From Gigantopelta aegis (Eukaryota; Mollusca; Gastropoda; Neomphalida; Peltospiridae), in contig NC_054713.1 in NCBI RefSeq assembly GCF_016097555.1, forward strand, positions 43,683,071 to 43,747,070: a stretch of 64,000 bases of DNA, given 5' to 3'. The notes under the pieces were generated by a model. It had not been told where the DNA came from. It made no database searches and was given only the letters and a program-made list of their open reading frames with translations. Positions within the stretch are counted from its first letter, which is position 1. Each line of letters opens with the position of its first letter. Position numbers and translations under genes: made by a program. This document shows, piece after piece, positions 776-59,400 of this stretch.

Positions 776-2999
776 ATGACTGTTTCTATATTAAAATGAT
801 GATAATTATATTTACAGACTTACGGCTGTAACAACTGGGTGTTTGCTGATGACTGTTTCTATATTAAAGTGATGATAATTATATTTACAGACTTACGGCT
901 GTAACAACTGGGTGTTTGCCGATGACTGTTTCTATATTAAAATGATGATAATTATATTTACAGACTTACGGCTGTAACAACTGGGTGTTTGCCGATGACT
1001 GTTTCTATATTAAAGTGATGATAATGATAATTATATTTACAGACTTACGGCTGTAACAACTGGGTGTTTGCCGATGACTGTGTACCGAGACTGTTTCTAT
1101 ATTAAAATGATGATAATTATATTTACAGACTTTCTATATTAAAAAATGATGATAATTATATTTACAGACTTACGGCTGTAACAACTGGGTGTTTGCCGAT
1201 GACTGTTTCTATATTAAAATGATGATAATTATATTTACAGACTTACGGCTGTAACAACTGGGTGTTTGCCGATGACTGTTTCTATATTAAAATGATGATA
1301 ATTATATTTACAGACTTACGGCTGTAACAACTGGGTGTTTGCCGATGACTGTTTCTATATTAAAGTGATGATAATTATATTTACAGACTTACGGCTGTAA
1401 CAACTGGGTGTTTGCCGATGACTGTTTCTATATTAAAATGATGATAATTATATTTACAGACTTACGGCTGTAACAACTGGGTGTTTGCCGATGACTGTTT
1501 CTATATTAAAGTGATGATAATGATAATTATATTTACAGACTTACGGCTGTAACAACTGGGTGTTTGCCGATGACTGTTTCTATATTAAAATGATGATAAT
1601 TATATTTACAGACTTACGGCTATTTTTGCCGATGACTGTTTCTATATTAAAATGATGATAATTATATTTACAGACTTACGGGTGTTTGCCGATGACTGTA
1701 AACTGGGTGTTTGCCGATGACTGTTTCTATATTAAAATGATGATAATTATATTTACAGACTTACGGCTGTAACAACTGGGTGTTTGCCGATGACTGTTTC
1801 TATATTAAAATGATGATAATTATATTTACAGACTTACGGCTGTAACAACTGGGTGTTTGCCGATGACTGTTTCTATATTAAAATGATGATAATTATATTT
1901 ACAGACTTACGGCTGTAACAACTGGGTGTTTGCCGATGACTGTTTCTATATTAAAATGATGATAATTATATTTACAGACTTACGGCTGTAACAACTGGGT
2001 GTTTGCCGATGACTGTTTCTATATTAAAATGATGATAATTATATTTACAGACTTACGGCTGTAACAACTGGGTGTTTGCCGATGACTGTTTCTATATTAA
2101 AGTGATGATAATTATATTTACAGACTTACGGCTGTAACAACTGGGTGTTTGCCGATGACTGTTTCTATATTAAAATGATGATAATTATATTTACAGACTT
2201 ACGGCTGTAACAACTGGGTGTTTGCCGATGACTGTTTCTATATTAAAATGATGATAATTATATTTACAGACTTACGGCTGTAACAACTGGGTGTTTGCCG
2301 ATGACTGTTTCTATATTAAAATGATGATAATTATATTTACAGACTTACGGCTGTAACAACTGGGTGTTTGCCGATGACTGTTTCTATATTAAAATGATGA
2401 TAATTATATTTACAGACTTACGGCTGTAACAACTGGGTGTTTGCCGATGACTGTTTCTATATTAAAGTGATGATAATTATATTTACAGACTTACGGCTGT
2501 AACAACTGGGTGTTTGCCGATGACTGTTTCTATATTAAAGTGATGATAATTATATTTACAGACTTACGGCTGTAACAACTGGGTGTTTGCCGATGACTGT
2601 TTCTATATTAAAGTGATGATAATTATATTTACAGACTTACGGCTGTAACAACTGGGTGTTTGCCGATGACTGTTTCTATATTAAAATGATGATAATTATA
2701 TTTACAGACTTACGGCTGTAACAACTGGGTGTTTGCCGATGACTGTTTCTATATTAAAATGATGATAATTATATTTACAGACTTACGGCTGTAACAACTG
2801 GGTGTTTGCCGATGACTGTTTCTATATTAAAATGATGATAATTATATTTACAGACATACGGCTGTAACAACTGGGTGTTTGCCGATGACTGTTTCTATAT
2901 TAAAATGATGATAATTGTATTTACAGACTTACGGCTGTAACAACTGGGTATTTGTGGATGACTGTTTCTATATTAAAATGATGATAATTGTATTTACAG
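776..2999 (+). repeat. 73-bp tandem array of a splice acceptor plus exon start (about 30 copies)
   Basis: The unit is about 73 bp. It consists of roughly 33 bp of intron end (CTATATTAAAATGATGATAA then TTATATTTACAG) plus the first 40 bp of the exon that starts at 3000 (ACTTACGGCTGTAACAACTG onward, through GCCGATGACTGT). Copies are near-identical, with G/A variants and some deranged units around 1081-1140 and 1615-1710. The two copies nearest the exon are the most diverged. Each unit carries a polypyrimidine-poor but complete acceptor, TATTTACAG. Confidence 0.95.
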
Positions 3000-3149
3000 A
3001 CATACGGCTGTGACAACTGGGTGTTTGCCGATGACTGTTCTCACCGGAACGTTTACACGGCCGTCTACTTCAGCGGCCACGCCCTACTACTGCTGATTAC
3101 GTCCATCTTGGCCTGGGTGCTTTTGGCAAACTTCAGAATTGAGGTTTAG
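3000..3149 (+). CDS. Last coding exon of an unidentified membrane protein
   Basis: The exon opens directly after TATTTACAG and reads 49 codons to a TAG stop. The peptide starts TYGCDNWVFADDCSHRN and ends LLANFRIEV. Residues 27-43 form one hydrophobic segment (ALLLLITSILAWVLLAN), so this is probably the last transmembrane helix of a membrane protein with a short charged tail. Cysteines at residues 4 and 13 lie just before the helix. I do not recognise the family. The rest of the gene must lie upstream of base 1 or be hidden before the array. An alternative view is that this is an alternative last exon of the helical-repeat gene that resumes at 8997. The coding status is supported by a synonymous ACT/ACA difference from the array copies and by the clean stop after the helix. 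Confidence 0.6.
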   Translation, partial: TYGCDNWVFADDCSHRNVYTAVYFSGHALLLLITSILAWVLLANFRIEV

Positions 3150-8099: not shown

Positions 8100-8148
8100 A
8101 TGTTTTATTTATGTTGGGTGCTGTTTTTAAAACCCCCCAACAAAACTA

Positions 8149-8996: not shown

Positions 8997-23909
<14,913 letters not shown>

Positions 23910-24867
23910 AGAACTGATATAACTTTTCCAGATTCATTTCTCAGTTCGAAAAGGCCTTAACTAAAATACAGATAATTTTTCCAGATTCATTTCTTTATTC
24001 AAGAAAAGTTTTAATTTAAAGAATTTATCTACTTTTTCAAGATCTATTTCTTGATTCGAGAAAGGTCATAATTAAAGAATTGATGTGAATTTTCAGATTC
24101 TTTTCTTAATTCAAGAAATGCCGTATCTACAAAACTGAATTGGATGTGACTTTTCGAATTCATTTCTCATTTCGAGAAAGGCCTCACCTAAACCAGAGAT
24201 GTGATTTTGCCCGATCCATTCCTTAATTCAGGATTGGCCTTAACTAGAGAACTCATCGAATTTTCCCACATTAATTTCTTTATTAAAAAAGTTTTAATGT
24301 AATGAATTGATCTACCCTTTCCAGATCTATTTCTTGATTCAAGAATGGCTTTTAACTACAGAACTGATGTAATCCACATTAAAAAAAATTAATTCAAGAA
24401 AGATTTTACAAAAGAACAAATGTGAATTTTCAGATTCATTTCTTAATTCAAGAAATGCTTTAACAGTATCTACAAAACTGAATCGTATGTGACTTTTCGA
24501 ATTCATTTCTCAATTCGAGAAAGGCCTTAATTAAACTCTTCTGATTTTTTCACATTCATTTGTGAATTAAAAAAACCCCTTGAACTTATAATGTGATATT
24601 TTCTTAACCGACTTCAGTCTGGTACTGTTGAAAGACTTTAATTATTATTTTTATTTAACATACAATACTTTTTACTTCAGCTATTTGAAATAGCAACATG
24701 TCTTTTTGCATTTATGTATTTTTTGTTTGTCATATTTTTAATCAAAATATTTAGTCTGCATTTATTCCATTTCGACATGATAAAATTCCGAAATGGCTCG
24801 CTGTCAGCAGAACAGTGGTTGGACCATCAGTGGTTTAATGTTTTAAGATTTTCTTTTCTTTTCCAAT

Positions 24868-32320: not shown

Positions 32321-32326
32321 TTTATT
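32321..32326 (-). terminator. SRPRB: Candidate SRPRB polyadenylation signal
   Basis: TTTATT on plus is AATAAA on minus, about 330 bp after the SRPRB stop and just beyond the tandem array. Confidence 0.35.
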
Positions 32327-32329
32327 TCC

Positions 32330-32680
32330 TTTATGCCAACATCGGAGAAATGGTCCACTCTTGTTAAGTCACATGGTGATTTCCCTTCTCCCAACATCTC
32401 AGATCTTATCCACTCTGTTAAGTTAAATAGTGATTTCCTTAAACCCAACATTTACTGTTTTATCCAATTAAGTTAAATAGTGATTTTCCATATCCCAACA
32501 TTTGAGATTTTAGCTACTGTTAAGTTAAATAGTGATTTCCCAACATCTGCTATTTTAGCCACTCTATTAAGTTAAATAGTGATTTGCCCTAAGCCAAGTT
32601 TTGAGATTTTAGCCACTGTTTTTAAATTAAATAATGATTTCCCAACATCTATTAAGCCACTCTGTCGAGCCACCTCGTTA
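32330..32680 (-). repeat. About 47-bp tandem array running into the SRPRB stop codon
   Basis: The unit on plus is AACATCTGCTATTTTAGCCA, CTCTGTTAAGTTAAATAGTG, ATTTCCC. The unit at 32645-32672 (AACATCTATTAAGCCACTCT, GTCGAG) contains the SRPRB stop (TTA on plus) and its last four codons. The 3'UTR array is therefore built from the end of the CDS. Confidence 0.8.
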
Positions 32681-32862
32681 TGGTGCTAAAATCTGCCTCC
32701 TCGTCAGTTTTCCCGTGGATGCTGCACTCGACAAACTCGATGGACATGGGTTTGAGGTCGGAGAACTCAAAGGGTTTGTTCCTCTTTCCCAGGTACGAGT
32801 TGTTGTTGGACGTGTTGTCGGTGCCCTGCAGTGCAGCCGCCTTGGTTACCCGCAATGTATTC
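32652..32862 (-). CDS. SRPRB: SRPRB exon 7 (last)
   Basis: Opens after TTTTCCAG and reads NTLRVTKAAALQG, a Ser/Asn linker, GKRNKPFEFSDLK, FVECSIHGK (G5) and ends RWLDRVA-TAA. NTLRVT is a conserved SRPRB signature. Confidence 0.97.
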
Positions 32863-41800: not shown

Positions 41801-42805
41801 TCTTATTCAGCTTAATTATAATTCGCATTTAAACAGTCTGTACCACTATAGGGTGGATTATTTTTTTCAGTGGATTTTTTGTTTTACACAATCGCATTCT
41901 GATGCAGGAGAGTCAGTCGGCCACTGATTTGTGCATTCACACGGTCAATCTGAGCTAGCCCTAGCCTTTAGACCGTCGTTGAAAATAATTCTGTATTCAG
42001 GAGTAGATCCAGGAATTATTTTGTGGGGTGGGGGAGAGACTAACCAGAAAAGGGCAAATAGAACAACACGTCAAAAATAATAATTAATAATTCACTTTTG
42101 TGACTGTTTAGTGTGTGTCACTATATTAATATTTATCATTATTAACAAGGGGTCTAACCGTCCTGCTTCAAACTTATTTGCTTAATTTTAATATTTAAAC
42201 AGGAGCGGATTATTTCCGGTTAAAAAACAAAACCCACCCCCACCACGTAGATAACCTGTAAGATTTATAATTTCAAATTATAAACATTTACATATTGTTT
42301 CGGACACCCCCCCCCCCCCCACACACACACCTAAAGCATAATCCGCCCCTGTATTATGATAAATACTAAACTGTCCCAAAGTTGATATTTTGCTGTCATT
42401 TTATTTTATTTTCAAGCCTTCCCAAAGTTGATATTTTGCTATGTCATTTTTTTCTATTTTCAAGCCTTTGTTCCTTTCACAAAGAAAATGTGACTTTTAA
42501 AAGTCATCAATATCCTCTGCGTGTGCTGTAACCTCACCGTGGTGCAGGGGTGTAACATTCTCTTTGAGAATGGCCAATACAGCACAAAATTGAAGTTTTG
42601 AGTAAAATTCAGTATCCGTAAAATTCTGTGATATTTGTTTTTTTGCACAGTTCTTTACACTGTTTTTGTTTAAGTCTTGAATTTTTATATTGATGTTGAT
42701 CATCACTTTATTTATTTGCATTACCATAGTTTGACACCCAATAGCCAATGTATTTTTCGTGCTGGGGTGTCGTTAAACATTCATTCATTCATTCAAGTCA
42801 TCAAT

Positions 42806-42837
<32 letters not shown>

Positions 42838-43744
42838 GATATATACGATAATAAATGAAAACAATTATTTATTATTAGTAATAATAATATTATTTATTAT
42901 TATTATATAATAGAATGCCAGAAATCAAATATAATTCAACGAAAATAATAAGGATCGCGCACCTTTACTTTTGACACACGCCCCGTATATCTGACATCAT
43001 GGGACGCCATCGTTGATTTTCAATCGATTTTAGAAATTGCTAATTAGGGACGTAATCAGGGGGGTGGGAACCCTATGGAGTTGCAAATGATCATAAAATA
43101 TATCCGGCAGGATCCACGAACGTGCTGAAAGTGCTAACATGTTGGAAATAGTGTTTTTGAAGGGGTAAGCCTCTATTTTTCGAAAGTGATCCGGAACTGG
43201 ACAAAGTGATCCGCAACTGGCGTAAGTACGCCAGCTAGAACAACACTGTTTTTGGTGCCAAATGTTTACCTAAATTTACATTTTATATCACTGTTTATTT
43301 ATATGGTTGATTATCTTTATTACCAAGAATTTCTTTTAAAGTCATACGTGCGCATGTTGACAGAATTCACAATTTTGTCTGAAGTGATCCGGAACTGGCG
43401 CATCACCTGTATTAATTTTTGAATATCAACAAATACTATTTCAAACAGCATTCATGATCAACTAAATAGTAAACATTTACCTACAAACTATTTAAAACAA
43501 AACCTATTATTTTCAACAATTTGATAAAGGTTACTTTTTTCTTTTTTAAAAAAATAAATAATAATAATAATAATAAATTTTAAAAATTAAAAATGTCATG
43601 AATCCATATGGCATTTAAATGATAGGCTATGTCACTTTGAAATTTACCTATAGTTAGTATGCCTACGAGTACAGCCACTAAAATCCCAATTGCTGAAGGA
43701 TCATGCCTCTTAAGAGCATCAACAAATTCTAAAACTAAACTCAT
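32652..43744 (-). CDS. SRPRB: Signal recognition particle receptor subunit beta
   Basis: SRPRB is the ER-membrane GTPase that anchors the SRP receptor alpha subunit and helps hand ribosome-nascent chains to the translocon. Seven exons on minus join in frame to 747 nt (248 aa; human 271): 43744-43648, 39996-39902, 37828-37751, 36864-36791, 35106-35047, 33789-33658, 32862-32652. The order is a short lumenal N-terminus, one membrane anchor at residues 18-38 (AIGILVAVLVGILTIGLLFY), G1 GICGAGKT (52-59), G3 DLPGHE (95-100), G4 NKQD (158-161) and G5 ECS (224-226). The C-terminus ITRWLDRVA parallels human SRPRB. Every GTPase motif is present, so it should be functional. The start ATG directly precedes SLVLEFVDAL with no better upstream choice. 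The gene is head to head with DDI2. Two introns contain arrays built from this gene's own splice donors. Confidence 0.97.
32945..33176 (-). repeat. tRNA-derived SINE (B tail), headless
   Basis: From ACGACGCACTCAACACATTT through body to GAACGAGAAATAGCCCAT. It sits in the last SRPRB intron in the same orientation as the gene. Confidence 0.92.
33658..33789 (-). CDS. SRPRB: SRPRB exon 6
   Basis: Encodes FLYTVLSDNTVLSRSLPILI, ACNKQD (G4), then AKGSKVIQSNLEKE. The donor is AT|GTAAGT-like (GTAAG). Confidence 0.97.
33869..33941 (-). repeat. SINE head fragment
   Basis: CCCAATGGATCCACCAACGG, GGATCGATCCTAAGACCGGC and TTTACCATTGAGCTATGTTC form the tRNA-like head only, minus orientation. Confidence 0.75.
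34485..34830 (-). repeat. Possible retroposed sequence with an oligo-A end
   Basis: On minus this reads a GC-richer stretch (GATAGCCACAAGAGACAATC, GATGTGGAGGTCGACGGCG, GAAATGAGATGGAATTC) ending GGGATAAAAAAAA. The composition differs from the surrounding intron. The family is not recognised, and the retroposon reading rests only on the oligo-A and base composition. Confidence 0.3.
35047..35106 (-). CDS. SRPRB: SRPRB exon 5
   Basis: Encodes AVVFVIDSLTFQKEIKDVAE, the strand and helix between G3 and G4, matching human IVFVVDSAAFQREVKDVAE. The donor is GTGAGT. Confidence 0.97.
35632..36152. mobile_element. Long-arm MITE
   Basis: GGACCCATATTCACAAAACC at the left and TTTCTGTGAATATGGGTCC at the right are inverted. 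ACATGTAAATGTAAATCTA and CATAAATGTAAATCTACGG add subterminal repeats. About 520 bp in an SRPRB intron. Confidence 0.7.
36264..36756 (+). repeat. Interspersed repeat, copy 1 (about 490 bp)
   Basis: Begins CAGGGTTCACACACTTTGTC. The middle part with ACTATAAACCAAGTTTCATA and GCAGCCACCACCGTAAAGGC recurs inverted at 59730-60175 (CATTGACCT / TGAAACTTGGTTTATAGTT, GGCGGTGGTTATGACATCA). Possibly a hAT-like non-autonomous element. Confidence 0.6.
36791..36864 (-). CDS. SRPRB: SRPRB exon 4
   Basis: Encodes VKIVDLPGHERLRNQSLEEN then KSQA. DLPGHE is the G3/switch II motif, with the His characteristic of SRPRB. Confidence 0.97.
37045..37107 (-). repeat. tRNA-like SINE head fragment
   Basis: On minus, GATCAGTTGGTAGAGTGCTG has an A-box and GGTCAGTGGTTCAACTCCCC a B-box, but no acceptor stem can be paired. 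A fragment of the same head lies near 35447. Confidence 0.5.
37286..37416. repeat. Palindromic MITE-like repeat, copy 2
   Basis: CGTACTGATTTTACGAAA and the inverted TTTCGTAAAATCAGTACG are the arms. It shares its core with 11524-11668. Confidence 0.75.
37418..37765 (-). repeat. 42-bp array of the SRPRB exon 3 donor (8 units)
   Basis: On minus each unit reads the exon end CCAGGTTTAAAGAAT, the donor GTGAGT, then TCAGTCTGTGAATGTATGTA. The true exon 3 (37751-37828) ends CAGGCTTAAAGAAT|GTGAGT and forms the first unit. Confidence 0.9.
37751..37828 (-). CDS. SRPRB: SRPRB exon 3
   Basis: Encodes LTHGKFKETYTSIKTNHGNY then TAGLKN, the switch I region after the P-loop. It is 26 whole codons, the acceptor is GTTTCAG and the donor GTGAGT. 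Confidence 0.95.
38004..39063. mobile_element. hAT-type non-autonomous transposon (1,060 bp)
   Basis: Ends CAGGGGTGGGGAAAA and TTTTCCCCATCCCTG are inverted with one mismatch. A perfect 8-bp duplication GTGTGTAG flanks it (37996-38003 and 39064-39071). CAGGGGTG ends plus an 8-bp target are diagnostic of hAT. No transposase is seen inside. It lies in SRPRB intron 2. Confidence 0.88.
39405..39915 (-). repeat. 59-bp array of the SRPRB exon 2 donor (about 8 units)
   Basis: On minus each unit contains the exon end GGAAAAACTCTCCTCTTTAC, TTGG, a donor GTATCT (GTAATC in the real copy), then ATTCTGCAATGTGTACAAAC, TTTCTTTAA. It includes the codons just after the P-loop lysine and abuts the real exon 2 at 39902. 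Confidence 0.92.
39902..39996 (-). CDS. SRPRB: SRPRB exon 2 (P-loop)
   Basis: Encodes GLLFYLKSTRSGRSSVLLLG then ICGAGKTLLFTW. It finishes the membrane anchor and holds the GTP-binding P-loop. The donor G|GTAATC was chosen because exon 3 then continues in frame with LTHGKF. Confidence 0.93.
40432..43409. mobile_element. Long TA-flanked inverted-repeat element (2,978 bp)
   Basis: The left end CAGGTGTTGCGCCAGTTCCG, GATCAC is inverted at the right as GTGATCCGGAACTGGCGCAT, CACCTG. Subterminal copies of the same word occur at about 40835 (ACGCCAGTTGCGGATCACTC) and at 43186-43225 (GTGATCCGGAACTGG, GTGATCCGCAACTGGCG). TA or TATT flanks both sides. I see no transposase. It has collected later insertions: an AAT tract at 40960-41010, a SINE tail at 42719-42797 and an ATT tract at 42805-42915. 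Confidence 0.65.
42719..42797 (+). repeat. SINE tail with CATT repeats
   Basis: TAGCCAATGTATTTTTCGTG, CTGGGGTGTCGTTAAACATT, CATTCATTCATTC is a SINE 3' end of another subfamily. A minus-strand relative (AATGAATGAATGAAAATGTT) lies at about 40268. Confidence 0.7.
43648..43744 (-). CDS. SRPRB: SRPRB exon 1
   Basis: ATG then SLVLEFVDALKRHDPSAIGI, LVAVLVGILTI. This is the short N-terminus and most of the single membrane helix. The donor G|GTAAAT joins to GLLFYL in frame. Confidence 0.95.
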
Positions 43745-44180: not shown

Positions 44181-44478
44181 ATGCAGATCACGGTAACGAC
44201 TTTATCAGATCAGATATTCACTCTGGATGTCGGCGAGGACATGGAACTTGAAAACTTTAAAGCGCTTTGTGAATTCGAAAGCGGCGTACCGGCTACAGAG
44301 ATCGCTATTCTGTGGAACGGGCGGCCCCTTACCGACAACAAACAAACATTAAAGCAGTATGGGGTGAAGGGCGGCGATGTTCTTCTTCTCCAACACATGA
44401 GGGGGTCATCGTCACAGCTGGCTGGGAATCCTGCAATACAACAATCAACTAGTCGGACACCAGCTTCAAGTTCAAGTG
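44181..44478 (+). CDS. DDI2: DDI2 exon 1 (ubiquitin-like domain)
   Basis: Encodes [20 protein letters not shown], then [20 protein letters not shown] and [12 protein letters not shown], the beta-grasp UBL of DDI proteins. The donor G|GTATAA is chosen. The alternative A|GTGGTA two bases or so earlier would also keep frame, giving Ser for Ser-Gly. Confidence 0.93.
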
Positions 44479-47400
44479 GTATAAAAACACCCCACCCCGC
44501 CCTTCCATTATGATTATAATGATTATGATTAAAGGGACATTCCTGAGTTTTCTGCATTGTAAGATGTTTCCTACTAATAAAATATTTATATGATTAAACT
44601 TACATATTAAATATATTTTCTTGTTTAGAATATCACTGTCTGTATATTCAATGTGTTTTTGGTCGTCTTAATATTTGTAAGAAGCCCAAACTGGATTTTG
44701 TCTTCAAATAATTTCGTATATATACGAAAAAATTATATTTTAGGAAATAAAATGAAATTTAACCTAGTAGTACAAATATTAGAACGATCAGAAACACGTT
44801 TAATATACCGTATATAGCCACTAATATTTTATGCAGAAAAATATATTTGATATGTAATCGACTGAATCATTAAAAAGTTTTTCTTAATCAATAACATCTT
44901 AAAAATTGCAGGAAACTCAGAAATGTCCCTTTAAATTTATGGTAGGACTTTCCTTTGGCACTGTCACGTATAAAGAACATTATAAATACTTATAATAAAT
45001 AGTTAGAGTTAGGGTTAGTGACAGTGCCAAAAGAAAGTCCTTCCGCAGGCCCTAATCTATAGTCTGTCCGGCAAGAGTTCCTTATTTTCCCCAATAACTT
45101 TAAATATTTGTTGGAATTAGTTTAAGGTTAGGGTTAGCGATAGTTATATACAATGCCTTTTAAAACAGTTTGTTCTATAAAATCAACATAATGTTTATAT
45201 TTCGTAATCCAGTATCGCTTTCTTTTGAAAAATTAAGACTTCCGAACGTTCCAGCATTCAGTTTATTCAGGCTTAGGTTTAGGGCTAGTGATATTAGCAT
45301 GCATGCTGGAACGTTTGGAAGTCTTTCCCATTTTTTCTATGCACAGTGTAAACAAACGCTCTAATTTATTATAAGGCGCTTCGCTTTCAACAACCTGACT
45401 TGTAAAAAACCCATAAATGACTTGATAGTATAATAAACTATTTAACTAAATATATTTCAGTTTGCATCAATAGAACGAAATGGAGTTATAGTATTTTTCT
45501 TTTACAAAAAATCCAAAGAAAAAATGCATATTATTAAGCCTATTGGTAGGGTACGTTCGAGCAAAAACTACCACTCACGATACCCAAGTGATACTTTTCT
45601 TTTCTTTGGGAAGACGTAATTGGTCAGTTTTGTGATTTTAGATGGGAAAGTCTACTTAATCAAGGGTTTTACAGAATTACTTACAGTAATAAAGCAGGGC
45701 GGCTGATAATGCCCATTACGACTGAAGGGGTATCCGTACGGTACCACACAATACCCTGTGATCTTAATAAAAGAGGCACGTCTTTTTAGTGAGTCTAGAC
45801 ACAGTGTCTGGGGACCGTCTAAATATACACCTGTCAATCAGGAACCACAGGTACAGGCCACAGAAAGAAAAGACCAATTAACCAAGAAAACACTCCGATT
45901 ATTATTTCAGTACATGGATTAATTTATGTACCAAACACAATACAGTTGTTTCAACACTGACAATGGTGGTTTATTTTGTATTGAAAAATAATATATAATT
46001 AAATTGTTGCGATACATTCACAAAAAGCAGGTATGTTTTGTTTCTTCAGTTCGAAGACTAATTCCTGACGTGACATGTTAGGTATTACGTAACCACCAGC
46101 TCGCCAGAGGGCGTATTCACTGGGATGGTACAAAATGGCTGCGCCCTTTATATATAATAGCCGTCACATTTAACCGTTTTATTAATTAACTATACGATTA
46201 TACTTGTTGATATTAAGCAATAATGTGCATTATATATCGTTGAATATGCATACCAGGCCAAATGCCTTAAAGTTAATTGTCCCCTCCTTTAAGGTTAGGG
46301 TTAGCGATAGTTATATACAATGCCTTTTAAAACAATTTGTTCTATAAAATCAACATAATGTTTATATTTCGTAATCCAGTATCGCTTTCTTTTGAAAAAT
46401 TAAACATTTTGACTATTCTGTGTAAAATGTCCTCCACAAGGGTCCTTTTGTTGGTGCTTTTGGAGGAAATATAGTACAGAAGACAGAATGAGGCATTATG
46501 GGACTAAATCTTCATTTTATTCCATAGATGTTTGGTTCATTCTGTCAAAATACACCCTATGAGATTTATAAGTATTAAAATACAGTCTCATTTGTTAGTA
46601 CACTGCGTGGTTGAGTGGTTGGAGTGCTCGACTACAGTCCCGATAGTCTGGGGTTCGTATCCAGACCTAGCACTACGTCGTTTGTAGTGTTTAATGCAAT
46701 ACCCAGTTGATATGGCTAATTCAGTACACCAAATGTGGGGAAAATACAGAACTCTTTCCTCAGGGATTCACAGAAGCACAAAATTAAGCTAAATTTGTGA
46801 TCCGTTTCCACCCAAATCTATAATTATTTTCTCATGAAAACATTTTTACTTGAGAGTGAGTAGGTCAGTATAAACGTTCATTAATACCTACGTATAATAG
46901 TTTTTTTTTTAAACAGGCATTCCAGTAATAGATTTTGGCAGCATCCAGATTCCCGGACGAGGCACGCCATCGAGATCGTCGTCAGCTGTCAATCAGGGAG
47001 TCACTCCGGCCATGATGGAAGACCCGGCGTTTGTGAGACAGATGCTGCTTTCCAACCCCCACCAGCTCTCTCTCCTGAAGGAACGCAATCCGCCACTAGC
47101 AGATGCACTGGCATCGGGCAGTGTCGGTGAGAAAATAAACACTTTTGTTTCAAGTACCTCCCCAAACTCCCCTGTTTTTAGTGTCTTCATTAATAAGTGG
47201 CAGATGCTGTCACCACATTTTTATGCTTACAGCTATATGAAGAGTTCATTTTGAAAACGTTTTATATATAACCATTATGTCATTTAACGATACACTCAAC
47301 ACATTTTATTTACGGTTATAATATGGCATCAGTCTTATGGTTAAGGACCACACAGATATTGAGAGAGGAAACCCATTGTCGCCACTTCATGGGCTACTCT

Positions 47401-50400
47401 TTTCGATTAGCAGCAAGGAATCTTTTATATGCACCTTCCCAAAGACAGGCTAGTACATACCATAGCCTTTGTTACACCAGTTGTGGAGCACTGGCTGGAA
47501 TGAGAAATAGCCCAATGTCATTTTGAGAAAAACATGATTTTGCAATTGCAGACATTTAAGAATTGACCGCAATTATTTTTTGGTTCATCTAAGTATGAAC
47601 CCCCAAAATGATGTGCATACTGTATGATTCCGCGTAGAAGGTCATACAAAAGTGTGCACATTGTTTTTTCGGTTCATACTTGCATGAATCCAAATAATAA
47701 TTGCGGTCAAATCTTATAATTAAATTTATATGCATACTTTAACAATACATAACTGAATTTATTTTGTTTAGCTTTAACTATGCCTGTAGTATTGTTCGTG
47801 TAAACTTCATTGATACTTATGTCGCGTAAGAATGCAAATGTTCATTCACTATTATTTGAATCAGGTGATTTTTTGGTACATGACATCTTTTACCAAATGA
47901 CGTCATTTGATAAGCGACGTCATTTCATCTAGCTGCTGTTAATTTTTACAGATCATTTCGTTATATTGGAAGGAATTGTCCTATTATTTTTTTTATAGTT
48001 TATAGTTAATGAAACTGAATGAAGGGAACGTGTCTAACATTTATGCTGTCAGTAGAACCGTTTAATTTTTGCCAACAGCTGTAGAACATCGCTTACAAGT
48101 AAGTTACAGGCATGAAGTTTCCTACATGATTCATTCCTATGGCCACCAACCAAGTCTCATGTCATGATTAGCAAAGAGGTTATTTTGTTTTTTTTAAATC
48201 AATGGGTATAGATCTACATGTCTACTCTGCTATAGCATTTTCCATTAATTTATTGTATATATATATTTTTTTTGCTTTTGTAGCTTTCACATGTATTTTC
48301 TTCAAAATATCTAAATATGGTTGCCTGAATAATCCAGCTTGTTGCACAAAAGTAGTGCAAGTCGGGGGAGGGGTTAGTAGGCGTGGCTTAAATTTTTCAG
48401 TTCACAGTAGTTGCAAAACAAGGCGTCGCATGCGACGTTTACTATCCTCATTTGCGACGTCTATTTTCGCCACAGTTGCTCAGACTGCAGTTCATATTTT
48501 CTTGGTTCTTGTCTGAATGGATAGCTCGGCTTCTATGGGTTAATTTCTTCAGGAAAACTTTGAGTTTTCCACGAATACAGCATCCATAACGGCTCATTGC
48601 TGTGGCGATTAGCGCCCACTTACACTGTACATGGAACGCTTGGATATCGCTTATTCCTGCACTGACTAATCACATTCAAGGATAGAAATGTGGGATCACT
48701 CCACATGATTATCATTATCATGGATTGCGAGAAGAATCAGAAGAAAAAGCAGCCAAGGCAGGAGTCAATAGACTCTTTGTTCAAGTGACAGAAACGAGAT
48801 ACGGAAATTCTGAATCGCTTTTTTTCCAACAAGACCGACGGTCATCAGTGTGTGGAATGCCTTTGTTTAAAAAAAAAAAAAAAAATTGATTCATGAGCAC
48901 ACAGATCCAGTGATTTTTCGCGATCGCGGAAAACGGACGGAATTATCTGAATTCCCATTGTGAAACGGAATTTACATTTGGAAATGGAATTACGATCTTC
49001 CGCGAAGTTAAAAAAAAAATCAATACTATTTTACTATTGCCACACGCAGTAAAACTGACAACTGACCCGTGTGCAGTACTATTGGCAAACGCTAGACTGA
49101 ATTATGCGCTTCACGGTAAACCAAATGGTCACATTGGGAACCAATCAAATACTTCGCAAACATTAGCGAAACGTTTGCTGGCTGAACTTGGGGATGGTTT
49201 ACTGCTTAGTCTGTTGCGCCTGCGCAGCTGGGACAGTTTTTTTTTTCAGGAGTAAGTTTAGCCAGCGGTTTGTCGCTAACACTTGTCTTGGAAGACAGAT
49301 TTTTACGCTACACATTAAACCGAATGACCATTTCGGGAACCAGTCAAAATATGTTTAGCAAGAAAACGGCTGGTTGAACGTTGCAATGTTACTTTATTTC
49401 CACTGTGTCATGCACATACTTCAATTTGCAGACGATGTTAGACTGTCAAAGTGATGATAAAATAAATGTTTACATTTTGTGAACCCTAAGCCCCGTTGAA
49501 TAAAGCAGTGCATTTAATTGTTGGACAATCATACTTTATGTAGTTATTATAATTGTAGCCTTTGCTCCTGATATGATTTTTCACTACTGATATGATCACT
49601 TTAAGTAACCTAAAGTCCGAACCAAATTGTTAACAACTACGATAAATAATTACTCTCCTACCTTTAATTACCGTTATATTTCCCCCAACTTTTCTCCGAA
49701 CACAAGTTGTGAAAAAACCATTACATTGACACAGATTCCACATACGAGACTGTAACGATGTCGCCAGTATCGACTTCGCTGAGATAGCATAGGGCAGTTT
49801 TCTGCCATCTGCCACTTTGGTTTTTTATGGAATACTCTTCAAGAGGGGTGAAAGCCTCCAAAGTATGTGACATAATTAATATAAAATCAATGATCTCTAG
49901 TGGTATCTTTAGACAAACAAAAAATACTAATAAAAACATTAATATGACGTCATCACGTTTGTTTTTAGATCATAACATGTTAAGACGTTTTTATATTAAA
50001 TGATATCCTTTCACCCCTCTTGGAGATTATTCCATAAAAAGTCAAAATGGTAGCCGGCACAAAATTACATGCTTTTTGCCCTATCAGCGAAGTCGATATA
50101 GGTGACATGGTTATCATCTAGTATGTGGAATCTGTGTTATTGTAATGTTTTTTTCAAGATTTATGTCTGGACAAAATGTGGGTAAAATCTAACGAAAAAT
50201 AAAGGTAGGAGAGCAATTTATCGTAGTTTTTAACAATTTGGTTCAGACTTTAATAAGATGAGACAACTTGTAGACTTAGTCACCCAGTCAGATTTCTTGG
50301 TTTTTCAAATTGTCTGAACCTGAAGCAACTAGAGTGGTCAGAGTGAGACAGTTTCTTTCTGACACACCTTTGACACAAATTGCCACTGTTTTGTCGTGAA

Positions 50401-53400
50401 ACAGAGAAATAGAATACATCATGTGATGTAACGTAGTTTGAACCAACAGCTTTTACAAGACATGTGCATTAACAATCTGAAATTTTTCATAACCCGAAAG
50501 TCATACTTGTTCTATTCTTGGGCCAACAATTTCACCAACTATATGCATTACAAGTGGACTACATTGCACACTTCTGTGGTAACAGACTCCGGTCCATAAA
50601 GCCCACACCCCCCCACCCCCATGCCCCTCATTACTGACTGTCTGTAGCTCTCGATAAACCCCCAACTCCTACTCTGTCAGTTCCAACGCCTAGTAGTACT
50701 TCGTTTTGCAACCGCTTGTTCATCGAGATATGAATAGAAAAAAGTAAGCACCTCTGGACCAATCGGATTGCCGTAAAGTGTATAGACGCAAAGAAAATTT
50801 AATTATTGGTTGTTGATTAAATTAATATGGGTTGGAATTGAGTTAAAAACCCCTCATTTATAATTTAACTATGGTTTAAAAAGAAAGTTCCATTGTCAAG
50901 AGGTAACATTACCACTTTAACGATGATCATGTTTAATTTTACAGAGATATTTAATAAAGTGTTTAAAGCTCAACAGGAGGAACGGTTTCAGCGGGATCGA
51001 GAGCGCATTAGACTGGCAACAGCTGACCCATTTGATGCTGAAGCTCAGAAAAAAATAGCCGAAGAAATCAGGTAAACATCTAATGACAAGTACTGTCAGA
51101 AATCAGGTAAACATCTAATGACAAGTACTGTCAGAAATCAGGTAAACATCTAATGACAAGTACTGTCAGAAATCAGGTAAACATCTAATGACAAGTACTG
51201 TCAGAAATCAGGTAAAAATCTGACGGCAAGTTCTGTGAGAAATCAGGTAAAAATCTAATGACAAATACTGTCAAAAATTAGGTAAACATCTAATGACAAA
51301 TACTGTCAAAAGTTAGGTAAACATCTAATGACAAATACTGTCAAAAGTTAGGTAAACATCCAATGACAAATACTGTCAAATTAGGTAAACATCCAATGAC
51401 AAATACTGTCGAAAATTAGGTAAACATCTAATGACAAATACTGTCAGAAATCAGGTAAACATCTAATGACAAATACTGTCAAAAATTAGGTAAACATCCA
51501 ATGACAAATACTGTCAAATTAGGTAAACATCCAATGACAAATACTGTCAAATTGGGTAAACATCCAATGACAAATACTGTCGAAAATTAGGTAAACATCT
51601 AATGACAAATACTGTCAGAAATTAGGTAAACATCCAATGACAAATACTGTCAGGAAACTGAAAAACATCTTATGACAAGTACTTTCAAAACTCAAGGAAA
51701 CATGTAATGACAAGTACTGTCAAACTCGGGTAAACACATAATGACAAGTACTGTCAAACTCGGGTAAACACATAATGACAAGTACTGTCAAATTCAGGTA
51801 AACACATAATGACAGGTACTGTCAGAAATCTTGTAAACATCAAATGACATACTGTCAGAAATTGGGTAAACATCTGACAAGTACTGTAGAAATTGGGTAA
51901 ACATCTAATAACTACTGTCAGAAGTCTGGTAAACATCTAATGACTACTGTCTGAAGTCTGGTAAACATCTAATAACAAAGACAGTGTATTGTCAAGAATG
52001 TTGCTTCTTTCTTGACAACAAATTATTAAAAAGAATTACCACTTAATTTTTTATCAATTGTGTGTTATTAAAATATGATATTATTAAGCAGAAGCATGAA
52101 TGAATAACAGTGTGTCTGTAACTTTTTGATTTAAAAAATTGAGAAATTGAGTTTATATGTAATGACAAACACAGAGAAATATACACATAATAATCTATAT
52201 GCATAATATTGTGCAGGAAAGAATAGCACCTTTTAAACTGTAATGGCTGTGATAGACAATAGATTTTTTAGCAACATTTTGAAATTTTATAACTAATATG
52301 GTTAATAGGGTCTCCACAAGTTCAAAATATTGGAATTGAGTACTCGAGGGTCAAACTCGACCCAGACCCGAGCACCAGACACTTACACTAGATGATAATG
52401 ACACTAAGGAATAAAATGAAAATAGCATTATGCATCTTAATTCCAGTGCTGAACATGGATCTCAAATCATGACATTGTATTGTATTCCACACATTCTCAT
52501 AACCATATAATGTAACAGGCTGCATGCATATGGCAAAATGATGTTTAAAAATATAATTGAATGAAAGTTCTCTTCCTTGCACAGGTTTACTTGTGAGACT
52601 CGGTCCATGCCCGAGTACTTGTTGAGACCCTAATGATTAGTACAAAGTCCAGTCATTTCCTGGTGTTGTGTTAACTCTGTATTGTTGTTTGTGTAGGTTG
52701 AAGAACGTAGAATCTAACATGGAGACGGCCATGGAGTTTGCTCCAGAGAGTTTCGGTCAAGTCGTCATGCTGTACGTTGATTGCCGCGTCAACGGACACG
52801 CAGTGAAAGCTTTTGTCGACTCAGGTGTGAATAAAACTCTACTCCGTTATTTGATTTTAAAACACGTTTGTGCGCGATCGAGTAATATGTGGTTGTGATT
52901 TTCCCAGATTTCTAACATTGAACTTCAGGTAGGTTTTTTGGGTAGTTTTTTTAGTATTTATTATTTTGTACAAATTAAATTTCATTTGATTTGAAGTGTG
53001 GAAATCTGATGTTCACTGAGTGAAATAAATATGGAACCAATGTTTCGTGACTTGGATGCAAAGTGTAATGTGAGTCCATCTGCATGTCAAAATATTTCTC
53101 CATGTTAATATTTTGTGAAGTTTAACTTTTTTTTTTAAAAGTGTTACTAAATCAAAGATCAACTTGTAATACAGAATCTCTTTTATAGACAGGACGATAC
53201 ATACAATGGTCTTTTATATATCGATTAATGACATGACAGCTATTTGGTGTGTAATAATTTGTTAATTGGAAACTTGGATTCGAATGAGAGAGAGGAAACC
53301 CACTGTTACCACATAGGCTACTCTTACTTAATAACATCCAGGTATTCTTTGACCTATGATAGTACATACTCTAGCCTTTGATACACCACTTAAAGGGACA

Positions 53401-56400
53401 TTCCTGAGTTTGCTGCAAATTTTAACATGTTATCGACTAACAGAGACATTTTAGTGATTGTAAATACATATCAAATATATATTTCTGCATAAAATATTAG
53501 TGGCTGTATGTTAAACATGTTTTTGATTGTTCTAACATTTGTACTAGGTTATATTTCATTTTATTTCTTAAAATATTTGTTTTCGTATGTTCGAAATTAT
53601 TTGAAGACAAAATCCAGTTTGGGTTTCTTACAAATATTAAAATGACCAGAAGCACATTGAATGTGTAAACACTGATATTCTAAACAAGAAAATATATTTA
53701 ATATGTAAGTTTAATCGTAGAAATATTTTATTAGTCGGAAACAGCTTACAATGCAGCAAACTTGGGAATGTTCCTTTAATGACAGCTATGCGTTGTGTAG
53801 TATGTAGTTATTGTGACACTTGGTCCAGTGAGAGATGAAACTGTCTCATACCACTTAGGTTCCTCCTAGCAGCAGTGTAACTGTGACCTTGTTTATTGAA
53901 GGGTTTTCTGTGTTTCAGGAGCCCAGATGACGATCATGAGTCAGGCGTGTGCTGAGCGGTGTAACATCATGCGGCTCGTCGACAAGCGCTGGGCCGGCAT
54001 TGCGAAGGGCGTCGGAACGCAGAAGATCATTGGCAGAGTTCATTTATGTAGGCTTTGCACCATATTTGTTAAGTTCTTTTTTTTTTAAACGTCACAAGAA
54101 TTCACTTTTTAAAACGTACATTCTCCAAACATACATTTATTTGAATTACTAACCCTTGGAATTGCCCATGTCAATCGGTCATGCTGTGGAGATTGCAGTG
54201 GAGTTTTTAATTCTTCGCAGAACTTTTTTTTGCTTTGGGCTGGATTAAATTTTTTTCCCACATCATGTTTTTTTCCATATACATTTTCTTAATTGCAGGG
54301 GATGAATTTCCTGTGCTTTTATTAATTAGTATTAGGTTGTTACACCAATAAACAAATGACTGGCAATAAGTATAAAAACGGCTATACACTCTAGTGACAT
54401 CATCATCTAGTAATGATATTTTGATGCATGTTTAAAAAATGTATATTCTAATCAAAGTAACCAGAACAAGTGCATGCATACATTGGGTCACTAAGAAAGG
54501 TCACGGTACATTTCTAGCATTACTGACATTAGTTGTTGGTAAGAAACAGTTTTCTTCAAACCCATCATTAAATGTAGTCAACAATTTGTATACAATGGCT
54601 GAACAATTGAAAGTTTGTTATATTTCATATGTTCATTAAATTTATAGTATGTAATGGAGAGGTATTCAGTGATAGAAATAAGCAAAAAAATTTACTAGTC
54701 CACCAAACAAATACATCTAGAAATCTATTTGTCCGCCAATATTTTCACTTGTCAAAAAACCCAGATTGCTTTATTCAAGTACCAGGATGATGTTAGTGAT
54801 TGCCCAAAATGAAACTGCACTGAAATGTTTTACTTGTCCACTGGACAACCACCAAGGCACAGTTTGCTTGTCCAAATAAATTTTCACTTGTTGGGACAAA
54901 TGGACAAGTGCTTATTTCGAATGCCGGTATTTACCTAGGCCAATCAACATCATTTACCGTGCTGAATAAATATTGTTGTTGAATGTTGTAAGAGTATAGA
55001 TAGTATTTAGTATATGTAGGAACTACTAAAATTATAGAGCTGGGTCAGTGTTTGGGAGTCGGTTGGGTTAAACAAACAATTATATTTCTAAGGTCAGCCT
55101 TGAAGAACATGACTTAAATTCATTCTGTAACTTTTTGCACATATACACCTGTCAAATTATTTGTTTCAGGTCAAATACAAATAGGTCCAGATTTCCTTCT
55201 GTCATCTTTTTCTTACTGCCTTTCCACTTCATTTATTTAATGGATACTATTATTGAATGTTGTAGGATAATATGACTTGTTACGTTTAAACATTGTATAA
55301 CTTTGTTTATGTTGAATTGTTTATGTTTCAGGTCAGATACAAATAGGCCCAGATTTCTTGCAGTCATCTTTCTCCATTTTAGAAGATCAACCAATGGACA
55401 TGTTGTTAGGACTAGATATGTTAAAACGACACCAGGTAACTCAGATCTCAATCATTAAGACTAATACGTTATGTTATATTCATATTTAACCTAACCTCTC
55501 ATTTATATGCTTGGTTAGGTTCATGATTCTCGAATCCTTCCCTCATTTTGTAAGATATTATTTTTATGAAATTAGCTAACACTAATCAAACTAGGTCAGA
55601 TACAACTCAGAAAAGTTTGTGAGTTTCATAAATGTATTTAATGAAAATGAGTGGTATTTTATTTATTAATCACTTTCAAATAATGTACTATGTAATAACC
55701 CTGTACAGGGGTTGCTTGGGTGTCCTCTTGCCCTGTTAAGCAGTATCCTAACAGGACACGAGTGATTTTTATAGAAACCATTGATTTCAATTGCTGCATC
55801 CTAACTGCACGCGTATGGCGCGATAGGTTGATTTCATCGAGCTCACGACACACTACAGATAGGAATTGTTTCTATTTTTCTCGCGCAACAAAAATATATT
55901 CACCAATCAGACAAGTTTTACTTGGTGATTTCAACGGTCAAAATTAATTTCAAAATTGGACACTGTCGTTACGGTCACGTCTGGTTTGGACATAAATATT
56001 AACTCGTCGCACGCATTTGGTTAGGATACAGCTTTATGCTACGCAGCTTATAAGTTGTGTCAGGGCTAGAGATTACTCTATATAACAGTTTGTGAATTTT
56101 CTACAACCAAATTATCATGAAGTACTGGCTGTTACATACATTTGCCGGTAAAATTCAATTTGTGACATTCTGCAAATGGTGAAATACAACATAGGTATTC
56201 TCTAACTTACAGCCAGACATTCTGGTTATTTGCATACTTTGTAATGTAACCACGACTGGTGTAACAAAGGCTGTGGTATGTGCCATCCTGTCTGTGGGAT
56301 GGTGCATATAAAAGATCCCTTGCTGCTAATGGAAAAGAGTAGCCTATGAAGTGGCGACAGCGGTTTTCCTCTCTCAATATCTGTGTGGTCCTTAATCATT

Positions 56401-59400
56401 TGTCTGACAACATATTTTAACTGTAAATAAAATGTGTTGAGTGTGTCATTATAGTGATTTCCCTAGAAATTTGGCAAGGCATGTTAGACCAAACACTTTT
56501 GTGGAATTTTCACCATTTTCGGGGCACTTGTTTTTCATTAAAAATACACAAAAATTAATTGAAATAAACATTAATGTAATTTATGTGCTTGCTTTAAGAA
56601 ATGAATGGCAAAAGATATAAAAGGCATATTTTATTAATTACCTTTTTAACCTTTTTTGGTGTTTTATAAAGGCAATTTTAGAATTAATTACTGAAAAAGG
56701 CTTATTTAATCTCAGGGCAGCATGGTGCTGATTAAGGCAAGATGGTGCTAGACTATTGAGGCATGGTGCTGCACCATGCTAAAACAAGCTAGGGAAAACA
56801 CTACGTTAAATAAAACATTTTCTTCCTTTCTTCCTTGTAATATGATTTCTGTTTTTTCTCCTTTCAGTGCTGTTTAGATTTAAAGAGGAATGTTTTGGTG
56901 ATTGGCACCACAAGCACGGTGACAAAGTTTCTGAGTGAGGGCGACCTGCCTGAACACGCGCGACTCAACCTGCACGCCAGTTCGACGAGCGAGGACGACC
57001 AGGATCTCGCACAGGCCTTAAGTCAGTCGGCCGCGGAAGCAGGTAATCACTACAAGACTCAAAACTGACAGGAGCCAGACAGAAAATGCTGCTCTAAAAA
57101 GACAATATGCAGAGATGAAAGTATTTCTGATTTTTAGTCTGTATTCAGGGTTTTCCACGATTTGCCCCAAATTCCTTGTCCAAAACTTATTATATGCTTT
57201 CTGATGCTTTGCATATTATTCTGAATAGGCCCTGCCATTTTAAATCATTGTATAACAGTAACCCTAGGGCAAATCTTCGTGCTCTAAAAACACAATATGC
57301 AGAGATAAAAGTATTTCTGATTTTTAGTCTGTATGATGATTCAGGGTTTTCCACGATTTGCCCCAAATTTGTTGTATTCCGTGTCCAAAACTTACTATAT
57401 GCTTCCTGATGCTTTGCATATTATTCTGAATAGGCGCTGCCATTTTAAACCATTGTGTAACCGTAACCCGAGGGCAAATCTTGGTACTCGATACACCAAT
57501 ATTAAAGTTTAGTTTATTTTTTTCTGAATTTACTTTCTGATAATCAGCTTCACAAGAAACTTTAAAAGTAACATTTTCATTATATCTAGAATTCTTGATT
57601 TACAGGAGTGATGGTATAAACCTTATGATGTTATCCATATTTGTCTCGAGTCTTCTGAATTACTGTTAAAAAAGTTACGCTACAAATCTTATGTCGAGTC
57701 TCATTTTGAAAGTGATTTTTTTAGAACTGCTTTTCACTTTGTAGCATTTGCGTCCAGCTTAAATTTGAGAAGGAAAGATTGCTTCCCACTCCATAAAATG
57801 GAGTATTGTGATTTACAAGACAGCTCTGTTAAGAGATACTATTATCTATGATATTGTTATTCAATTGTTTGCTGGGGACAAAATCTACTTCCCTGACCCT
57901 TGTCATAAAATTGTTGGAGTGGATTTCATTGATTTCATATTGGGCTATTTCTCGCTTCGTCCAGTGCACCACGACTGGTATATCAACGGCCATGGTATGT
58001 GTTATCCTGTCTGTGGGATGGTGCATATAAAAAATCCCTTGCTGCTAATCGAAAAGAGTAGCCCATGAAGTGGTGACAGGGGGTTTCCTCTCTCAATATC
58101 TGTGTGGTCCTTAACCATATGTCTGATGCCATGTAACTGTAAATAACATGTCTTGAGTGAGTCATTAAATAAAACATTTCCTTTCCTTTCATTGATTTCA
58201 ATTATTATTATCATGGTAGTGAGAAGACACTGATTTAAATTTAAATTAAATAAAAGGTATCCACTGGGCAGCTAATCATGCCGGCAGTGACTGAGAAAGA
58301 AGTAACATTGGACAAACCAGAGGGCTGGAATAGGTCCAAAACACACCAGATTTCGGTGTTACACAACACACTGTGAACTATAGATCTGGCAGCAAACAAC
58401 ATTGAACATGTGCGCTGTATTTTGACAGTGCCAGACTCACCAGACATAGACTAACCAGACTCGCCAGACCTAGACTCATCAGACCAAGACTCACCAGACT
58501 CATCAGACCTAGACTCGTCAGACCTAGAGTCACCAGACCAAGACTCACCAGACCTAGACTCATCAAACCTAGACTGACCAGACTCGCCAGACCCAGACTA
58601 ACCAGACCTAGACTAACCAGACTCGCCAGACCTAGACTCACCAGACCTAGACTTATCAGACCTAGACTCACCAGACCAAGACTCACCAGACACCTAGACT
58701 TATCAGACCTAGACTAACCAGACTCGCCAGACCTAGACTAACCAGACTCGCCAGACCCAGACTCATCAGACCTAGACTCACCAGACTCGCCAGACCCAGA
58801 CTGACCAGACTTGCCAGACACAGACTGACCAAACTCGCCAGACCCAGACTGACCAGACCTAGACTCGCCAGACACAGACTCACCAGACCCAGACTAATCA
58901 GACCTAGACTCACCAGACCCAGACTCACCACACCTAGACTCATCAGACCCAGACTAACCAGACTCATCAGACCTAGACTCGCCAGACCCAGACTCACCAG
59001 ACCTAGACTCGCCAGACTCACCAGACCTAGACTAACCAGACTCACCAGACTTACCGGACCTAGACTCGGCTTCTGGGTGTTTTGGGCTTTAGACAGATTA
59101 AGTCACGCTATTATCACGGAACTAGACTCATTAGTTGTGCCAGTTTGGGCAAATATGTTTTTAATATCACTAAAAATTAATATTATTTTACTTTTAGCCA
59201 AATGCACAGAAGAATGATCGTCAGATATCCATAGTGCATCATTTAAAATTTTTTTTTTTTTTTTTTTTTTCCAGCCAAACAAACAGGAGAAGGGACGTCA
59301 TCAGATACCCATGGTGCCTCAGGATCGCGAAGCGGAATTCTTGCATTTTCCGAGAGTGTCGTCTCGGCACTAATGGCCAACGGGTTTTCCCGACAGGCGG

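What the first reader, a model, noticed from the sequence alone, without database searches (positions are those of the whole stretch)
776..59243. Minisatellites repeatedly built from exon edges with their splice sites or stop codons
Six separate tandem arrays in 64 kb, in four different genes, each have a unit that spans a host gene boundary: an acceptor (776-2999), donors (37418-37765, 39405-39915, 51060-51985) and stop codons (23872-24590, 32330-32680). Four more boundaries have single decayed copies (15306, 22865, 55170, 59193). The unit always includes a few to 40 bases of exon and the adjoining non-coding side, and one edge copy stays functional. In the four splice-site arrays, use of any decoy reads straight into an in-frame stop. 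Possible explanations are that exon edges are preferred start points for slippage or break repair in this genome, or that edge-crossing duplications are simply the only exon duplications tolerated. Either way the density is striking, and I know of no described name for it.
Basis: partly seen in the sequence, partly recalled or inferred. Interest (0 to 1): 0.88.

Follow-up and report, generated by a model that had tools for sequence, protein, structure and literature searches.

The report
Repeat arrays copied from exon edges
In one stretch of a deep-sea snail genome, short pieces that straddle the ends of gene segments have been copied over and over into repeat arrays; this kind of array was already described in amphioxus under the name "mirage", and what is new here is the animal, how many there are, and how closely repeat arrays crowd the exon ends.

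Summary
The window is from the vent snail Gigantopelta aegis: my spliced SRPRB (250 aa) and DDI1/DDI2-like (459 aa) proteins are 100% identical to that species' annotated proteins, so the exon-proximal copies are the annotated sites. I modelled 25 exons (50 edges) of four genes. All six arrays are real. The four claimed decayed copies are significant, and I found a fifth (33361-33427). In total 11 of 50 edges have a nearby spanning copy. Splice decoys are mostly intact (AG 29/30; GT 7/7, 7/7, 24/26); decoy stop codons are not (6/11, 0/6).

A name exists: "mirage" minisatellites, described in amphioxus. This is a new member of a known kind.

Best explanation: ordinary tandem duplication in a repeat-rich stretch (24% arrays), filtered by tolerance of any duplication that leaves the exon-proximal site usable. 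Tolerance alone does not predict the excess at edges (6 of 26 minisatellite arrays span one, 0.73 expected) or that non-spanning arrays also sit near edges (6 of 15 within 50 bp, 2.1 expected; all six in one gene). An exon-edge hotspot stays open, on one post-hoc window; the genome-wide search did not complete.

The parts
775..3039 (+). Acceptor-spanning array, 73-bp unit, about 31 copies. Functional acceptor at 2999|3000, 40 nt of exon in the unit; last exon of gene A is 3000-3149
   Evidence: AG intact in 29 of 30 decoys. Gene A is supported only by its open reading frame and splice signal.
23889..24590 (+). Array spanning the stop codon of the armadillo-repeat gene (stop 23907-23909), unit about 55 bp, 12 copies, 21 nt exonic
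   Evidence: (TRF to 24372)
32324..32663 (-). Array spanning the end of the SRPRB coding sequence (exon low edge 32652), unit about 54 bp, 7 copies, 12 nt exonic
   Evidence: (TRF to 32650). The stop triplet is kept in 0 of 6 decoys.
33361..33427 (-). Decayed copy of the SRPRB last-exon acceptor edge (real edge 32862|32863).
   Evidence: z 5.5, p 0.005 (floor)
37424..37764 (-). Donor-spanning array of SRPRB exon 3 (edge 37750|37751), 42-bp unit, 8 copies, 14 nt exonic
   Evidence: GT intact in 7 of 7 decoys
39421..39926 (-). Donor-spanning array of SRPRB exon 2 (edge 39901|39902), 59-bp unit, 8 copies, about 25 nt exonic
   Evidence: GT intact in 7 of 7 decoys
51063..51979 (+). Donor-spanning array of DDI-like exon 3 (edge 51071|51072), 35-bp unit, 27 copies, 9 nt exonic
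   Evidence: GT intact in 24 of 26 decoys; identity to the functional copy falls with distance (rho -0.68, P 1e-4)
15286..15340 (+). Decayed copy of the armadillo-gene exon 3 acceptor edge (real edge 15801|15802; exons numbered from the first one identified)
   Evidence: z 6.2
22867..22921 (+). Decayed copy of the armadillo-gene exon 7 donor edge (real edge 22514|22515)
   Evidence: z 6.1
55122..55212 (+). Decayed copy of the DDI-like exon 6 acceptor edge (real edge 55331|55332)
   Evidence: z 15.2
59166..59232 (+). Decayed copy of the DDI-like exon 8 acceptor edge (real edge 59274|59275)
   Evidence: z 6.1
32652..43744 (-). SRPRB gene, coding parts of 7 exons: 43648-43744, 39902-39996, 37751-37828, 36791-36870, 35047-35106, 33658-33789, 32652-32862
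   Evidence: 100% identical to the annotated G. aegis protein
44181..59483 (+). DDI1/DDI2-like gene, coding parts of 8 exons: 44181-44478, 46917-47126, 50945-51071, 52697-52824, 53919-54047, 55332-55435, 56868-57042, 59275-59483
   Evidence: 100% identical to the annotated G. aegis protein
11707..23909 (+). Armadillo-repeat gene, last 9 exons (earlier exons not identified)
   Evidence: (Pfam Arm, E 1.4e-10)
17509..18199 (+). (AC)n array starting 12 bp after the armadillo-gene exon 5 donor: a non-spanning array close to an exon edge
22540..22826 (+). 27-bp array starting 25 bp after the armadillo-gene exon 7 donor, between the real donor and its decayed copy

Best explanation
These are 'mirage' minisatellites: tandem arrays that began as ordinary short duplications which happened to span an exon edge, then grew by slippage or unequal exchange into the non-coding side. 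They persist because, when an edge is tandem-duplicated, the exon-proximal copy still joins to an unchanged exon, so the protein is intact as long as splicing (or translation termination, for the stop arrays) uses that copy. The other copies are neutral decoys that drift and decay. Shown: array structure, position of the functional copy, identity of the resulting SRPRB and DDI-like proteins to the annotated ones, intact decoys, no coding constraint on decoys. Inferred: that splicing ignores the decoys (no RNA data here) and how the first duplication arose. The crowding of arrays at exon ends suggests a modest extra bias towards exon edges, which is not proven.
For: All six arrays lie at an exon end and extend outward, with the functional copy exon-proximal. 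The proteins made with the exon-proximal sites are 100% identical to annotated G. aegis SRPRB and DDI1-homolog-2-like proteins, and a Haliotis relative aligns without a gap across the DDI junction. No array lies wholly in 3379 bp of coding sequence, with 2.0 expected by density. Decoy exonic halves are not more conserved than intronic halves in three of four arrays: pairwise difference 0.30 v 0.17, 0.17 v 0.06, 0.16 v 0.07; the fourth is 0.04 v 0.06. Identity to the functional copy falls with distance in two of six arrays (rho -0.68, P 1e-4; rho -0.89, P 0.02), as expected of growth at the exon end followed by decay. The same structure, reported not to interfere with regular splicing and to be unstable in length, is described for amphioxus mirages.
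Against: Tolerance alone predicts that edge-spanning units occur no more often than a random unit would hit an edge, but 6 of 26 arrays span an edge against 0.73 expected. It gives no reason for non-spanning arrays to lie near exon ends (6 of 15 within 50 bp against 2.1 expected within the same introns, P 0.006). Four of six arrays show no significant distance-identity trend. In one of four splice arrays decoy exonic halves are slightly more alike than intronic halves. Splicing was not observed; I did not see how the NCBI models were supported.
Confidence: 0.72

Rival explanations
1. Exon edges are mutational hotspots for tandem array birth in this genome (for example through transcription-linked breaks, a composition step or chromatin boundaries), and tolerance only decides which survive.
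For: Unit-collapsed enrichment of edge-spanning arrays (6 v 0.73 expected; 10 v 1.6-3.7). Non-spanning arrays, including an (AC)n and a CCAT array, lie close to edges when compared with random placement within their own introns (5 of 15 within 30 bp v 1.26, P 0.003; 6 of 15 within 50 bp v 2.1, P 0.006; 8 of 15 within 100 bp v 4.1, P 0.01).
Against: One window, chosen because of the pattern. All 8 non-spanning arrays within 100 bp of an edge are in one gene (armadillo-repeat). Uncollapsed, edges are less often in repeats than average positions. Copies of a constrained edge stay detectable longer than copies of neutral sequence, which inflates the decayed cases (my estimate by hand, not computed in a call: about 1.4-fold). 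The 45-nt exonic cap in one null was set after seeing the data.
Confidence: 0.3
2. The arrays are selected regulators: decoy sites that lead to early stop codons tune expression by unproductive splicing.
For: Decoy splice signals are mostly intact (29/30, 7/7, 7/7, 24/26) and all 68 tested decoys give an in-frame stop (30/30, 24/24, 7/7, 7/7).
Against: Young copies keep GT/AG by descent alone. Random non-coding reads of 11-24 codons contain a stop 48-75% of the time. The two stop-codon arrays cannot work this way. The genes have unrelated roles (from general knowledge). Amphioxus mirages are reported not to interfere with splicing.
Confidence: 0.05
3. Chance overlap: in a window that is 24% array, edges simply fall in arrays.
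For: Uncollapsed random placement would put about 12 of 50 edges inside arrays, more than observed.
Against: Random placement would put edges deep inside arrays and arrays inside exons. The six arrays reach 9-40 nt into the exon and point outward. Unit-collapsed expectation is 0.56-0.73, or 1.6-3.7 for all duplications.
Confidence: 0.15
4. The arrays are assembly artefacts.
For: Not testable here: no reads were available and the genome search did not complete.
Against: Copies within the four splice arrays differ from each other (mean pairwise 5-21%), and five decayed single copies outside the arrays carry the same signature.
Confidence: 0.04

Closest known systems
Mirage minisatellites of amphioxus (Adh3; globins BflGb6 and BflGb9; PGBD5 repeats likened to them)
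   Same: Minisatellite-like tandem duplications spanning an exon-intron boundary, at both 5' and 3' boundaries, with AG/GT kept in many copies and the authentic boundary used (PMC3087553 section 16; PMC3902484 passage)
   Different: Here four genes of a gastropod are hit within 64 kb, with up to 31 copies per array, and two arrays span coding stops rather than splice sites. Splicing and length instability are untested here.
Intron gain by tandem duplication of AG|GT-bearing exon sequence (Rogers model; Drosophila cases in PMC2891723, passages; Zhuo et al. 2007, not held, known only as a citation)
   Same: Tandem duplication across a splice-competent sequence creates extra splice sites
   Different: Here the intron already existed, the duplication lengthens it, and no new intron is seen
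Variable internal tandem repeats at exon-intron boundaries in human segmental duplications (PMC2812944, passages)
   Same: Minisatellite expansion at exon-intron boundaries
   Different: Those change exon or intron structure between paralogs; here the SRPRB and DDI-like proteins are unchanged

Membership tests
Mirage minisatellite | Tandem array whose unit contains exon and adjoining intron of one boundary | tested here: met
   Four splice-edge arrays:
Mirage minisatellite | Many, not all, copies keep the AG/GT signal | tested here: met
   29/30, 7/7, 7/7, 24/26
Mirage minisatellite | Authentic boundary copy lies at the exon end and gives the normal protein | tested here: met
   Three of four splice arrays: SRPRB and DDI-like proteins 100% identical to annotated ones. 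For gene A inconclusive (49-codon frame, no Pfam match).
Mirage minisatellite | Does not disturb regular splicing | not testable with these tools
   No RNA data
Mirage minisatellite | Length instability between haplotypes or in soma | not testable with these tools
   Only one haplotype sequence; genome search unanswered
Mirage minisatellite | Boundary is an exon-intron boundary (asked of the two stop-codon arrays) | tested here: not met
   The arrays at 23889 and 32324 span coding-sequence ends, not splice sites, so they are filed only as analogous
Intron gain by tandem duplication | A new intron bounded by the duplicated splice sites | tested here: not met
   The annotated SRPRB and DDI-like proteins need only the exon-proximal sites

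The most novel reading that the evidence does not exclude
Exon ends are preferred birthplaces of tandem arrays in this genome: arrays of all kinds, including ones that contain no exon sequence, start within tens of bases of splice sites several times more often than intron position predicts. This would make introns grow from their ends by mirage formation.
Probability: 0.25. Interest if true: 0.7.

Novelty: new member of a known kind. Interest (0 to 1): 0.42.

Why it matters
It extends a little-known amphioxus curiosity to a gastropod, with six arrays and five decayed copies in 64 kb. If the excess near exon ends holds genome-wide, tandem arrays would be a route by which introns lengthen from their ends and by which decoy splice sites arise in bulk. 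The arrays would then be natural tests of how the spliceosome picks one of up to 31 near-identical sites.

Tried and rejected
Related-species DNA: the collections offered are described as prokaryotic, viral, phage or plasmid, so I spent no scans on them; related proteins were found. Recursive-splicing idea (AG|GT decoys as ratchet points): dropped, because of the three donor arrays only the DDI-like one has AG|GT, and in only part of its decoys. Idea that in-frame stops are a design feature: dropped after the random-read control. Raw overlap as a significance test: dropped, because uncollapsed placement expects more edges in arrays than seen. One search (tiles, one copy per family kept) gave local copies for 5-6% of intron tiles, 13-14% of intergenic tiles (I think largely the 1.5-kb duplication), 0-1% of coding tiles and 4-10% of tiles near exons, against 8-10 of 50 edges tested directly; the two measures are not equally sensitive, because the retained copy may be the intronic one, so I replaced them, which keep the exon-adjacent copy. 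The array list was merged by hand, with four arrays of period 2-4 left out of the spanning count and the limits of the two stop arrays extended beyond TRF's. The wraparound parse prints the SRPRB exon 2 donor as GTATCT; the sequence itself reads GTAATC. In one search the SRPRB exon 2 limit was wrong because the search string matched a later copy, and one search ran with a wrong SRPRB exon 5 limit, corrected to 35047. Papers: PMC117041 (the Adh3 mirage paper) and PMC1783408 are not held, so they are cited only through PMC3087553. Passages of an earthworm metallothionein paper (PMC12783039) tell of intronic repeats and of duplications of exon 4 that are absent from the transcript, which may be a related case; passages of a C. 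elegans paper (PMC4039745) tell of a minisatellite in introns next to alternate exons; passages of a mussel lysozyme paper (PMC3448621) mention intronic tandem repeats only. None was pursued.
Full report
What was checked. Arrays of all kinds, microsatellites included, cover 15,452 bases, 24.1% of the window (array list merged by hand).

Source. The spliced translations of two genes are 100% identical over their full length to proteins named "protein DDI1 homolog 2-like [Gigantopelta aegis]" (459 aa) and [quoted passage not shown] (250 aa), both listed with a longest contig of 46,388,186 bases. Gigantopelta aegis is a gastropod of the family Peltospiridae.

Gene models. Exons were set by reading frames, splice signals and frame continuity before those matches were known. 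SRPRB (minus strand, 7 exons) also aligns to solved SRPRB chains over residues 10-250 (E 2e-64). That alignment has a one-residue gap in the window's protein near the exon 3/4 junction, and no insertion there. The DDI-like gene (plus strand, 8 exons) has ubiquitin, Ddi2 HDD and aspartyl-protease domains and a UBA match below Pfam's cut-off. Two chains named DDI1 homolog 2 match on either side of the array-bearing junction but neither crosses it; the Haliotis asinina relative does cross it without a gap. Nine exons of an armadillo-repeat gene join in one frame and are 67% identical over 96% to a Pinctada protein. A single last exon (3000-3149) stands for gene A, which had no Pfam match, so its acceptor is less certain. 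That makes 25 exons and 50 edges: 44 splice edges, 4 stops and 2 starts.

The arrays. The acceptor array of gene A has a 73-bp unit, 31 copies and 40 exonic nt. The donor arrays are SRPRB exon 3 (42 bp, 8 copies, 14 nt), SRPRB exon 2 (59 bp, 8 copies, about 25 nt) and DDI exon 3 (35 bp, 27 copies, 9 nt). The stop arrays are the armadillo-repeat gene (about 55 bp, 12 copies, 21 nt) and SRPRB (about 54 bp, 7 copies, 12 nt). In all six the functional copy is exon-proximal. Decoy signals are intact in 29 of 30, 7 of 7, 7 of 7 and 24 of 26 copies of the splice arrays, but stop triplets are kept in only 6 of 11 and 0 of 6 copies of the stop arrays.

Decayed copies. Each of 50 edges was aligned to its surroundings within 1.5 kb, against 200 dinucleotide shuffles. 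Four further edges reach p 0.05 or less without convincing structure and were not counted: ARM5 donor (p 0.02, not spanning, an AC-repeat match), ARM7 acceptor (p 0.01), DD5 acceptor (p 0.03) and DD7 donor (p 0.04).

Is it more than chance? Placed whole at random, arrays would contain about 12 of 50 edges; likewise about 30% of all positions have a local copy scoring 58 or more, against 5 of 50 edges. So plain overlap means nothing, and by that measure edges are poor in repeats. The fairer test counts each array as one unit: 6 of 26 minisatellite arrays span an edge where 0.73 is expected (Poisson P 1e-4), and at least 4 splice-edge arrays has P 0.004. The limits of the two stop arrays were extended by hand; by strict TRF limits the SRPRB stop array would not span. 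Taking all local duplications as events, 10 of 43-46 in the window span an edge where 1.6-3.7 are expected (P 0.0015 or less); at a stricter threshold it is 8 of 39-45 (P 0.00025 to 0.022). One of the two nulls caps exonic overlap at 45 nt, a value set after seeing the data. All P values are post hoc, since the window was picked for this pattern. A copy of a constrained edge also stays detectable longer than a copy of neutral sequence, which helps the decayed cases more than the young arrays.

Arrays lie near exon ends even without spanning them. Of 15 non-spanning arrays in introns of three genes, 6 lie within 50 bp of an exon end where 2.1 are expected under placement within the same introns (P 0.006); 5 are within 30 bp against 1.3 (P 0.003); 8 are within 100 bp against 4.1 (P 0.01). 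All of these are in the armadillo-repeat gene, so one locus carries this result.

How it probably works. A tandem duplication across an exon edge leaves the exon-proximal copy joined to an unchanged exon. If that copy is used, the protein is unchanged, and further copies accumulate in the intron or the 3' untranslated side. Exon-internal arrays would alter the protein, and none is seen (0, with 2.0 expected). In three of four splice arrays the exonic halves of decoys differ more than the intronic halves, and in the fourth slightly less, so decoys show no coding constraint. In the DDI array the three copies next to the functional one are identical to it and identity falls outward (rho -0.68, P 1e-4); the SRPRB stop array shows the same trend (rho -0.89, P 0.02); the other four do not reach significance. 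Use of any tested decoy gives an in-frame stop (30/30, 24/24, 7/7, 7/7), but random non-coding reads of 11-24 codons do so 48-75% of the time, so this needs no selection.

What is known. Tandem repeats spanning exon-intron boundaries are called "mirages" in amphioxus: Adh3, globins BflGb6 and BflGb9 (PMC3087553, section 16 read). Repeats in PGBD5 are likened to them, and troponin C is named as another case (PMC3902484, one passage). The globin paper reports that mirages seem not to interfere with regular splicing and are unstable in length. I saw no report of mirages in molluscs in the listings of my ten paper searches; the most direct one (mirages, splice, tandem, intron) found four papers, two on amphioxus and two unrelated by title. 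Two listings were cut (10 of 3,129; 15 of 101), and only open-licence papers are held. Intron gain by tandem duplication (PMC2891723, passages) and boundary repeats in human paralogs (PMC2812944, passages) are related.

Verdict. The stop-codon arrays are an analogous case rather than mirages proper. Whether exon ends are preferred sites is open: the collapsed counts favour it, but they come from one window picked for the pattern, and the genome search that would decide did not complete.

Noticed in passing
4972-6516 and 6541-8099: A tandem direct duplication of about 1.5 kb in the intergenic stretch between gene A and the armadillo-repeat gene (event lists).
   Followed up: no
29249-30325: Tc-type transposase-like sequence (Pfam DDE_3 and HTH_Tnp_Tc3_2), interrupted by one in-frame stop.
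   Followed up: partly
19264-21594: A 57-bp satellite of 41 copies at 98% match, whose unit resembles by eye part of a dispersed repeat seen elsewhere in the window (for example near 32945-32990); it ends 72 bp before armadillo-gene exon 6.
   Followed up: partly
12432-14734 and 17509-18199: A 2.3-kb CCAT-type array and a 0.7-kb AC array in armadillo-gene introns produce long spurious open reading frames on both strands.
   Followed up: partly
57090-57276 and 57289-57502: A two-copy duplication of about 200 bp shortly after the DDI exon 7 donor (edge 57042), not spanning the edge.
   Followed up: no
3235-4440: A 29-bp array of 42 copies starting 86 bp after the stop codon of gene A, so both ends of this exon are next to arrays.
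   Followed up: no
11707-23909: The armadillo-repeat gene has relatives in molluscs, annelids, amphioxus, hemichordates and cnidarians, several with a ubiquitin-like domain and named ARABIDILLO-like or left uncharacterized (30 proteins listed).
   Followed up: no
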